Positions 18,944 through 37,505 of a DNA stretch of 64,000 nucleotides are shown in pieces. Each line of letters begins with the position of its first letter. Positions within the stretch are counted from its first letter, which is position 1. The notes under the pieces are model-generated. The model saw nothing but the letters and a program-made list of their open reading frames with translations. It searched no databases and was not told where the DNA came from. The position numbers and the translations under genes were made by a program. This stretch comes from Leptotrichia hofstadii (GTDB lineage: Bacteria; Fusobacteriota; Fusobacteriia; Fusobacteriales; Leptotrichiaceae). The DNA is taken from NCBI RefSeq assembly GCF_007990525.1, contig NZ_AP019823.1, positions 806,001-870,000 on the forward strand, read 5' to 3'.

Positions 18944-18950
18944 TATTTTT

Positions 18951-19249
18951 AACAGCAATTCGTCTTTTTCATTTTAAAAAAAAACTATCTTTACAAGTAT
19001 AAATATGAGACTTAATCTTCAATTTTGGAAGAATACAAAATAACGGAGAATTAAATTATATTAAAGATAACAGGCAAAATAGAGATGAAATTCTATAACA
19101 ATTAATTTGGTAGTTTTGTGAATCTAATTTTTAAGTATCCATACAAGATTTTCATAATAGAGTTATTTAATAGCTAATTCATAATCATTAAATTATTTTT
19201 TAGATATTTTGATTAATAAATATTTTTTCATATTATTATGTTTTTTCTT
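18951..19249. other. AT-rich intergenic stretch with no recognised feature
   Basis: Between the toxin promoter and the structured repeat I see no open frame with a ribosome site and no stable hairpin. Confidence 0.4.
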
Positions 19250-19375
19250 TTTATTTCCGTAGGATTGCTCATTGCCGCAAATCCTACAACCTATGGCTAG
19301 TCTACGACATTTTTCTGCACTGACAAAAAACTCGCTATGCTCAGACAGTTTTGTCAGCACAGAAAAATGCTCCGA
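19250..19375 (+). repeat. structured dispersed repeat, copy 3 (hairpin part only)
   Basis: It shares 'GATTGCTCATTGCCGCAAAT' and 'AACCTATGGCTAG' with the long repeats at 6835-7502 and 24462-25020. Hairpin A is GTAGGATTGC (19259-19268) with GCAAATCCTAC (19277-19287, one bulged A). Hairpin B is CATTTTTCTG (19308-19317) with CAGAAAAATG (19360-19369), an internal CA/CA loop, then CTGACAAAA (19320-19328) with TTTTGTCAG (19349-19357). The stem sequences differ from copy 2 but the pairing plan is the same. The outer 400-500 bases of the long copies are absent here. Confidence 0.8.
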
Positions 19376-19486
19376 CAGGTTATTTATACTAGGCTTTATT
19401 TGAAGAAAATTATATTTTAATTATTTGAAATTATTAGATTTATACCCCTTATCAGAAAAGTTTGTAATAAATCCGATATTTAAACC

Positions 19487-19532
19487 AAAAAAGACAGGAA
19501 CACATTCCCCTCATCTAGAAAGCCCCCTGTCC
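19487..19532 (-). terminator. terminator of the small lipoprotein gene
   Basis: Minus strand GGACAGG and CCTGTC form the stem and a six-T run follows. The same element with similar flanks occurs after the paralogue at 37189-37232. Confidence 0.8.
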
Positions 19533-19585
19533 TTCAAATTCATTGTTTTTAAATCGCCGTTATTCATTTCATCTGTTCCGTATAG

Positions 19586-19765
19586 CTAGTATGTTCTGTT
19601 TCCGTATCTATCCTTGCAGTAATACTCACCATTAGCCCTCCTATAACATGTTTCTCCTCTTTCAGCAGCTCTCCGATCTGCATTTCTCCAAATGTCTATA
19701 TCCTCTGCAGTACATCCCATAATTGCCATAGTAAAAATAATCATCAGTAAAATTTTCTTAAACAT
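19586..19765 (-). CDS. 59-residue lipoprotein with a Cys-x9-Cys motif (copy A)
   Basis: ATG 19765 is preceded by AAGGAG. The peptide starts MFKKILLMIIFTMAIMGC: a lipoprotein signal with a lipobox-like 'IMGC', so Cys18 would be lipidated. The mature part is short and basic and ends 'CYRRANGEYYCKDRYGN', with two cysteines 10 residues apart that could form a disulfide. A close paralogue lies at 36953-37132 with the same length, the same start and end, and a related 3' untranslated region and terminator. I recognise no family; it could be a small envelope lipoprotein or a lysis-type peptide. Two retained copies in one window argue that it is a real gene. Confidence 0.75.
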   Translation of the reverse strand: MFKKILLMIIFTMAIMGCTAEDIDIWRNADRRAAERGETCYRRANGEYYCKDRYGNRTY

Positions 19766-19957
19766 CGCATATCATCTCCTTCTGTTTTAAATATCCATGT
19801 CAAATTATCATTTCATTTTATGTATTAACTGCTTATGTTTTTATATTTTTATTGTACAATATTTTATGTTGGAATACAAGGTGTTTCTGTATTTCTTCAA
19901 TTTGTTATTTTCAAAATTTTATTTATATTGAAAACGGAATTGATTTTGTATTATTTT

Positions 19958-36477: not shown

Positions 36478-36540
36478 CAATGGGATTTAAAAATTTTTAA
36501 TTTGTCTTTTAATAAAATATTTGAAATTATATTGCAATTT

Positions 36541-36580
36541 TTATATAAGCAAAGGAAATTAATCGCCATTTTCGTTGTTT
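36541..36580 (+). repeat. degenerate fragment of the long dispersed repeat
   Basis: 'GCAAAGGAAATTAATCGCCA' resembles 'GCAAGGGAAATCAATCGCCA' at 6920-6939 of copy 1. Only this outer segment is present. The rest of the gap up to 36830 shows no gene. Confidence 0.45.
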
Positions 36581-36832
36581 TATAAAAAGAAAAAACATAG
36601 AATTATGGAAAAACATTTATTAATAATAAGCAGTTTTTCAAAATTTAAATAAAAGACTTAATGATAAAATTTAATTGAAGGATATTTTTATAGCTACATA
36701 GGTTATATAATAGCATAATTTTATAAAAAAGATTTTAATTCCATGAATTTTCTGATTTTTGTTATTTAAATGTCAAATAGTATCAGATATAATTTTATTT
36801 TTTATTAGATTTTCGGAAGAAATATAAAAAAT

Positions 36833-36861
36833 TTGCATTCCAATTTGAAATATTATATAAT
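36833..36861 (+). promoter_or_regulatory. promoter of small lipoprotein copy B
   Basis: TTGCAT (36833-36838), a 17-base spacer and TATAAT (36856-36861). The predicted leader is about 85 nt. Confidence 0.75.
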
Positions 36862-36952
36862 GAAGATGTAAAAAGAACACAAATAGTTAATATATAAAAT
36901 GGAATAAATATATTTGGTTATAGATATTTAAAATAAAAGGAGATGGTATTTA

Positions 36953-37132
36953 ATGTTTAAGAAAATTTTACTGATGGTTATACTTGTGATGTCTGTAGTG
37001 GGGTGTGAGCTGTTTGATCCTAAAGGCTGGAAAGAAGCACGAGAAGATATGAGAAAAGAAGGTAGAAAATGTTATAAAAGGGCTAACGGTGATTATTACT
37101 GCAAGGACAGGTACGGAAATATTGTATATTAG
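36953..37132 (+). CDS. 59-residue lipoprotein with a Cys-x9-Cys motif (copy B)
   Basis: ATG 36953 lies after AAAGGAGA. It starts MFKKILLMVILVMSVVGC, a lipoprotein signal with lipid on Cys18, and ends 'CYKRANGDYYCKDRYGN' plus three residues. The first seven and the last twenty residues match copy A at 19586-19765 almost exactly, while the middle differs ('ELFDPKGWKEARED' against 'TAEDIDIWRNADRR'). Both copies are 59 residues and carry similar downstream DNA ('GATACGGAATAGATGAAATA' here) and the same kind of terminator. The gene has its own promoter and is monocistronic. Function unknown; duplication of the whole transcription unit and conservation of both ends suggest the ends carry the function. 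Confidence 0.75.
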   Translation: MFKKILLMVILVMSVVGCELFDPKGWKEAREDMRKEGRKCYKRANGDYYCKDRYGNIVY

Positions 37133-37188
37133 CTATGTGTGATACGGAATAGATGAAATAATGGCAGTTTAAAAACAACGAATTTGAA

Positions 37189-37232
37189 GGACAGGGGCTT
37201 CCTATACAGAGGAATGTTTTCCTGTCTTTTTT
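37189..37232 (+). terminator. terminator of small lipoprotein copy B
   Basis: GGACAGG (37189-37195) and CCTGTC (37221-37226) followed by six T residues. It is the homologous partner of the element at 19487-19532. Confidence 0.8.
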
Positions 37233-37505
37233 CTTTTGAGCAAATATTTTATTTTTATTCTATCTACGTTCTATTTTTTCATTAATTTTCTGATGAAAGT
37301 CAATTTTGTTTTCAACATTAATAACATTGACTAACTATACGTTTAATGAATTATCTTGTTTTTTTGTATAGAATATGATATTCTAATAATGTAATTTTTA
37401 AAAATAAATTTTAATCAAATTGAGATTGAATTGATAAAAATTAAGTGAATTTAGATTCGAGTAGGAATAATTATAATTTTGGAATAAAGAAGGATGTTAG
37501 AAAAT
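37233..37505. other. intergenic region upstream of hslO with a 15-bp palindrome
   Basis: AGAATATGATATTCT at 37370-37384 is a perfect dyad with one central base and could be an operator or a small hairpin. A TTGACT at 37328 is a possible -35, but no good -10 follows. Nothing else is seen. Confidence 0.4.

What the first reader, a model, noticed from the sequence alone, without database searches (positions are those of the whole stretch)
36953..37232. Duplicated tiny lipoprotein unit with conserved ends and 3' UTR
Copies at 19765-19586 and 36953-37132 have the same length (59), near-identical first seven and last twenty residues including two cysteines, but unrelated middles. Their downstream DNA and terminators also match. 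Conservation of signal, tail and UTR with a variable centre hints at a family under diversifying selection, or at a small RNA derived from the UTR.
Basis: seen in the sequence. Interest (0 to 1): 0.52.

Follow-up and report, generated by a model that had tools for sequence, protein, structure and literature searches.

The report
Shuffled repertoire of tiny lipoproteins
Two small matching genes turn out to belong to a family of about thirty tiny lipid-anchored proteins scattered over one oral bacterium's chromosome, whose middle parts have been swapped like building blocks between copies and between species, as expected of a recognition or immunity repertoire.

Summary
The two 59-residue lipoproteins share promoter, start, tail and terminator but differ in the centre. 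Relatives occur in 10 of 13 genomes of the genus and only 3 others among 98 of the phylum. No Pfam, NCBIfam, PHROG, PADLOC, PDB, phage or plasmid match is convincing.

Each mature protein is about 41 residues: lipid anchor, variable helix, cysteine-bracketed hairpin. Helix and hairpin are exchanged independently between copies. At loci with well-conserved flanks, the helix, the hairpin or both differ between species (14 of 22 pairs). A PHI test and no-recombination simulations reject descent without exchange. In one subgroup dN/dS is about 1 in the helix block and 0.2 in signal and tail, with even synonymous divergence.

A UTR-derived small RNA is not supported: only the terminator is conserved. 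Copies sit between housekeeping genes, with no recurring toxin neighbour.

Best reading: a simultaneously expressed repertoire diversified by segmental recombination, perhaps acting as envelope immunity, as TipC lipoproteins do; the function is inferred, not shown.

The parts
36953..37132 (+). lipoprotein gene, copy 2: signal 1-18, helix block 19-39, hairpin C40-C50, tail 51-59
36833..36861 (+). conserved sigma-70-like promoter, TTGCAT-17-TATAAT
   Evidence: among the most conserved non-coding stretches of 19 cassettes; read
37187..37233 (+). intrinsic terminator of copy 2
   Evidence: fold; stem kept with paired changes among copies in the alignment (read by eye). The simple scan did not list it
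36504..37344 (.). insertion carrying copy 2, absent from the same hslO site in all 6 of 12 relatives in which both flanks align
19586..19765 (-). lipoprotein gene, copy 1, downstream of polC
19851..19879 (-). conserved promoter of copy 1, TTGTAT-17-TACAAT
   Evidence: read; alignment; not listed by the scan
19487..19532 (-). intrinsic terminator of copy 1
   Evidence: not listed by the scan
18948..19924 (.). insertion carrying copy 1 plus dispersed repeat; site filled alike in G001, empty in 5 relatives (G002, G003, G006, G011, G012)
19150..19440 (-). about 290-bp dispersed repeat; 47 matches in the genome, 10 within 600 bp of a family gene

Best explanation
The finding is two members of an undescribed, Leptotrichia-centred family of tiny lipoproteins. 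Shown by sequence: each gene is a cassette with its own promoter, ribosome-binding site and, where it stands alone, terminator. It encodes a type II signal peptide with lipobox cysteine, a charged block of about 20 residues with a near-invariant Trp, and a C-Y-x4-G-x2-Y-C segment with a conserved tail. The block and the C...C segment are exchanged independently between copies at chromosomal sites between housekeeping genes, many of them shared by several species; new sites arise by insertion. Inferred: exchange runs through the conserved ends by homologous recombination; the block forms a helix and the C...C segment a disulfide-closed beta-hairpin on a lipid anchor in the envelope; all intact copies are made at once, so the cell carries a repertoire. 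Inferred with less confidence: helix face and hairpin tip are specificity determinants that bind variable antagonists acting in the envelope (toxins or bacteriocins of competing oral bacteria) and neutralise them, so copies are kept, multiplied and reshuffled as immunity genes. My odds: family plus segment exchange about 0.95; co-expressed repertoire of recognition proteins about 0.65; immunity against bacterial antagonists specifically about 0.35.
For: Family: 29 matches at E <= 1.4e-16 in the own genome; 13 of 98 phylum genomes, 10 of them in the genus. Exchange: N-block and hairpin have disjoint nearest neighbours in 52 of 60 genes. In 500 simulations without recombination under each of two rate models (54 genes) the mean is 14-17 and the maximum 28, against 44 observed; the N-hairpin distance correlation is 0.17 against a simulated minimum of 0.42; pairs with same N-block but unlike hairpin number 7 against 0 in every simulation. 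PHI p = 0.001, 0.001, 0.006 (53 distinct sequences). Same-site swaps: 14 of the 22 pairs with upstream flank identity >= 0.85; for example polC, flank 0.94, leader 0.97, N 0.57, hairpin 0.97, tail 1.00. Constraint: pS fairly even, pN about threefold higher in the centre than at the ends; hairpin C, Y, G, C nearly fixed with variable tip positions. Expression units: conserved promoter, RBS and terminator. Model: helix 23-35, strands 39-42 and 48-51. Precedent: TipC, a lipoprotein-signal immunity protein with conserved ends, variable centre, 15 paralogues in one strain and recombination (PMC9484751, section 18 read).
Against: No toxin or other partner gene recurs next to the copies; nearest neighbours read as housekeeping (names by eye except those checked). 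No antagonist is identified, so 'immunity' rests on analogy. dN/dS near 1 in the centre could be relaxed constraint; over all 60 core genes it is 0.78, and 0.42 in the MKNIFK group. Several sites (S3 galU in G000/G002/G003, S4, S7 uppS, S12 hisS) keep nearly the same protein between species. The count of pairs with same hairpin but unlike N-block (11) lies at or within the upper tail of the simulations. The structure model is weak (pLDDT 67, 5 sequences). 41 residues is very small for a typical immunity protein. Expression is not shown.
Confidence: 0.45

Rival explanations
1. Host-facing antigenic diversification: the lipoproteins are surface-exposed and segment exchange evades host antibodies, as at the vlsE locus of Borrelia.
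Against: No sign of a single expression site with silent donors: the 19 MFKK cassettes carry promoter, RBS, start and signal, and 26 of 31 catalogued own-genome copies read as complete. Surface exposure unknown.
Confidence: 0.2
2. Phage shield: the lipoproteins bind outer-membrane proteins and block phage receptors or DNA entry, as small superinfection-exclusion lipoproteins do, and diversify with phage.
For: Small lipoproteins of this kind are known in phages (recalled); weak PHROG matches of a few members, among them the Cor family (3 of 24 members, best E 0.15).
Against: No relative of P0002 in 50,697 phage records and none of P0001 or P0002 in the viral contigs; PADLOC gives no convincing match; no prophage genes recognised next to the copies (by eye).
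Confidence: 0.15
3. The lipoproteins are themselves polymorphic contact-delivered toxins, comparable to SitA lipoprotein toxins of Myxococcus.
For: Modular, polymorphic, lipid-anchored, many copies. SitA toxins are lipoproteins with exchangeable parts (PMC8546572, abstract and outline seen).
Against: No enzyme-sized C-terminal domain and no recurring neighbouring immunity gene; SitA has both a nuclease domain and a cognate immunity protein.
Confidence: 0.1
4. Mildly constrained filler: a proliferating intergenic cassette whose centre is under relaxed selection, with shuffling as a by-product of repeats recombining.
For: dN/dS about 1.0 in the centre of the MFKK subgroup; 10 of 47 dispersed-repeat matches lie within 600 bp of family genes; a minority of copies are decayed.
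Against: Cysteines, Trp, Gly, hairpin frame, signal, tail, promoter and terminator are kept across species; dN/dS about 0.2 at the ends of the MFKK genes; tandem amplification to 35 copies in one genome.
Confidence: 0.15

Closest known systems
TipC immunity lipoproteins of Streptococcus (TelC/TipC, type VII secretion) and EsaG paralogues of S. aureus
   Same: Many non-identical paralogues, conserved blocks near the ends, variable centre, recombination through the conserved blocks; TipC has a predicted lipoprotein signal (PMC9484751, abstract and section 18 read).
   Different: No detectable sequence relation in family libraries; only 59 residues; dispersed over about 20 loci without a toxin gene; an organism with an outer membrane, no T7SS shown.
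VlsE/vls of Borrelia
   Same: Segmental gene conversion in a lipoprotein (PMC9159922, search listing with start of abstract only).
   Different: One expressed gene with silent cassettes there (recalled); here separate complete units.
SitA lipoprotein toxins of Myxococcus
   Same: Modular polymorphic lipoproteins in multiple families (PMC8546572, abstract seen).
   Different: Nuclease domains and cognate immunity proteins there; none seen here.
Immunity gene arrays of type VI secretion in Vibrio cholerae
   Same: Accumulated diverse immunity genes (PMC5361080, search listing with start of abstract only).
   Different: There the arrays belong to effector clusters; the Leptotrichia copies have no such neighbour.

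Membership tests
TipC-type immunity proteins | sequence homology to the family | tested here: not met
   No convincing Pfam, NCBIfam or PDB-sequence match; no direct comparison with a TipC sequence was made
TipC-type immunity proteins | gene lies beside its toxin gene | tested here: not met
   Neighbours of the own-genome copies read as housekeeping genes (by eye; the window's neighbours by Pfam)
TipC-type immunity proteins | conserved ends, variable centre, recombination among paralogues | tested here: met
TipC-type immunity proteins | neutralises a toxin | not testable with these tools
   needs an experiment
Bacterial lipoproteins (type II signal) | N-terminal K, hydrophobic stretch, G or S, then C | tested here: met
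   C invariant and preceded by G (28) or S (28) in all 56 rows counted of 58 distinct combinations
Antigenic-variation cassette system (vls type) | one expression site plus silent donors | tested here: inconclusive
   Promoter, RBS and start are conserved in 19 MFKK cassettes and 26 of 31 own copies read as complete, which speaks against it; expression itself not tested
3'-UTR-derived small RNA | conserved transcribed UTR body | tested here: not met
   0.47-0.52 identity over 19 cassettes; no Rfam match in the region
Phage superinfection-exclusion lipoproteins | homologues in phages | tested here: not met
SitA lipoprotein toxins | C-terminal toxin domain with cognate immunity gene | tested here: not met

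The most novel reading that the evidence does not exclude
Leptotrichia carries a genome-wide combinatorial recognition system built from unusually small units: about 30 co-expressed lipid-anchored proteins of about 41 residues, each pairing one of many helix segments with one of many disulfide-hairpin segments. The combinations are rewritten by segment exchange at loci shared between species, so species with about 95% identical flanks carry different repertoires that decide which competitors' toxins, bacteriocins or phages the cell survives.
Probability: 0.3. Interest if true: 0.8.

Novelty: new variant of a known kind. Interest (0 to 1): 0.6.

Why it matters
Families this small are easily missed: the window copies match no curated family. 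If the repertoire decides survival against competitors or phages, it would be a compact natural set of binding modules with dozens of naturally made combinations, and a handle on how closely related oral species exclude or tolerate each other. The same-site comparison across species is a clean natural experiment: same locus, same signals, only the presumed recognition segments changed.

Tried and rejected
Small RNA from the 3' UTR: not supported. Known families: Pfam, NCBIfam, PHROGs, PADLOC and PDB sequences give only weak matches; where the matched stretch was shown it lay mostly in the signal peptide. Longer relatives (73-99 aa) and one of 62 aa also have no family in Pfam, the three longer ones none in NCBIfam. 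Viral, phage and plasmid origin: nothing found. Co-location with toxins: not seen. Mobile-element reading: copies are inserted at new sites and tend to lie near a dispersed repeat, but I recognised no transposase with them in the own genome (by eye), and many loci are shared between species; possible target duplications at the two window sites are too short to call. The simple promoter/terminator scans were uninformative in this AT-rich DNA; the comparative alignment replaced them. A fold search was not run, the model being too weak. Searches (PMC open-licence papers only) list no paper on the family; the L. buccalis genome paper has no 'lipoprotein' in its text.

Full report
What is there. 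They share MFKKILLM at the start, a lipobox cysteine at 18 and the tail C-Y-x-R-A-N-G-x-Y-Y-C-K-D-R-Y-G-N; residues 19-39 are largely unlike. DNA similarity spans the whole cassette, 73% over 431 bp from about -135 to +279. One lies downstream of polC, the other upstream of hslO (Hsp33).

A family, not a pair. A profile search of the own genome gives 29 matches at E <= 1.4e-16, spread over about 20 places. A few of them are interrupted or lack a start. In the genus, 10 of 13 genomes have matches at E <= 1e-6: G000 31, G001 2, G002 22, G003 17, G004 45, G006 3, G008 1 (decayed), G010 11, G011 2, G012 3; G005, G007 and G009 have none. Of 98 genomes in the phylum only 13 match, the other three in the same family of bacteria and with 1 to 3 matches each. 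In G004, 35 copies stand head to tail on two contigs, mostly about 170-260 bp apart. No Pfam, NCBIfam, PHROGs, PADLOC or PDB family fits convincingly, and no phage, plasmid or viral contig match was found.

Anatomy. Among 58 distinct combinations of the core set, the cysteines, Tyr and Gly of the C-Y-x4-G-x2-Y-C segment are nearly fixed, while its inner positions and most of the preceding block vary; Trp 26 and Gly 37 are near-invariant. AlphaFold2 on 5 sequences gives helix 23-35 and strands 39-42 and 48-51, with pLDDT about 80 over residues 41-59 and 67 overall, so this is a sketch only. Over 19 cassettes of the MFKK subgroup, identity peaks at the promoter (0.78-0.85), the ribosome-binding site and first codons (0.80-0.92), the tail (0.71) and the terminator (0.71). 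The UTR body falls to 0.47-0.52. In tandem pairs the first copy runs into the leader of the next without the terminator.

Exchange of segments. Nearest relatives of N-block and hairpin are disjoint in 52 of 60 genes, and their distance matrices correlate at only 0.15. The within-block controls of that call are themselves modest (odd against even codons: signal 0.67, N-block 0.45, hairpin 0.22), so I rely on simulation. Without recombination on the gene tree of 54 genes, simulations give 14-17 disjoint genes on average (maximum 28) against 44 observed, a correlation of at least 0.42 against 0.17, and no pairs with same N-block but unlike hairpin against 7. One statistic, same hairpin with unlike N-block (11), is not clearly outside the simulations. 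The PHI test gives p = 0.001, 0.001 and 0.006 for three window widths.

Same site, different protein. Flanks identify shared loci between species. Of 37 pairs measured at 11 sites, 22 have an upstream flank identity of at least 0.85; in 14 of these the N-block or the hairpin or both are at most 0.65 identical (counted by eye). At site S1, next to a pepF-like gene (name by eye), four species with upstream flanks of 0.96-0.97 have N-blocks at 0.46-0.60. At the polC site (window copy 1), G000 and G001 have flank 0.94, leader 0.97, signal 0.85, N-block 0.57, hairpin 0.97, tail 1.00. At site S5 the hairpin alone differs between G000 and G003 (N 0.95, hairpin 0.61, tail 0.93). Against this, sites S3 (G000, G002, G003), S4, S7 and S12 keep nearly the same protein. 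Downstream flanks often align poorly in the measured stretch (mean 0.62), because intergenic insertions differ between species.

Selection. In the MFKK subgroup (17 genes) pS is 0.43, 0.44, 0.38, 0.48 for signal, N-block, hairpin and tail, while pN is 0.13, 0.45, 0.25, 0.16; dN/dS is 0.22, 1.03, 0.59, 0.23. Over all 60 core genes it is 0.35, 0.78, 0.53, 0.14; in the MKNIFK group (8 genes) the N-block reaches only 0.42.

Gain of loci. The hslO site is continuous, without the 841-bp stretch 36504-37344, in all 6 relatives in which both flanks align (G001, G002, G003, G004, G008, G010; the other 6 could not be judged). The polC site is empty in G002, G003, G006, G011 and G012, filled in G001, and holds only repeat pieces in G004, G008 and G010; G005, G007 and G009 could not be judged. 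A 290-bp repeat (window 19150-19440) has 47 matches in the genome, 10 within 600 bp of a family gene against 0.7 expected under uniform placement; that null is not restricted to intergenic DNA.

How it probably works. Each complete cassette should be transcribed on its own, so the cell would carry the repertoire at once. The anchor and tail are constant and two segments vary and recombine, which suits specificity determinants. The nearest described parallel is TipC of Streptococcus, a lipoprotein-signal immunity protein with conserved ends, a variable centre, 15 paralogues in one strain and recombination through the end blocks (PMC9484751, abstract and section 18 read). By analogy I favour neutralisation of variable envelope-acting antagonists. 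Host antigenic variation, phage shielding, lipoprotein toxins and relaxed filler remain possible. I do not file it in the TipC family: no homology found, no adjacent toxin.

Novelty. I found no description of the family in five searches of the open-licence PMC library. The kind of evolution is known; the size, the two independently exchanged segments, the dispersed shared loci and the lineage are new to me.

Noticed in passing
window 19150-19440 (-); 47 places in the own genome: About 290-bp dispersed intergenic repeat, also in relatives, often inverted or in pieces at loci that hold or lack the lipoprotein gene.
   Followed up: partly
L089:1669-7063 and L090:9672-11846 (G004 contigs C13, C42): Head-to-tail array of 35 diverged members on two contigs, probably one larger array broken by assembly, between an alpha-glucosidase-like gene and cinA (names by eye).
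   Followed up: partly
L096, L108, L172 (G010, G000, G014): Longer relatives of 73-99 residues in which the C-rich hairpin part seems doubled; similar signal and CELxxPKxW start; no family match.
   Followed up: partly
L049:7297-7926 and L090:952-1293: Secreted-looking proteins with a MliC (lysozyme inhibitor) domain, one 1.4 kb from two family copies, one on the array contig; probably coincidence.
   Followed up: no
L123, L132 (G010 contigs C21, C72): hslO found on two contigs of the draft genome G010 with equal scores, perhaps a duplicated assembly stretch.
   Followed up: no
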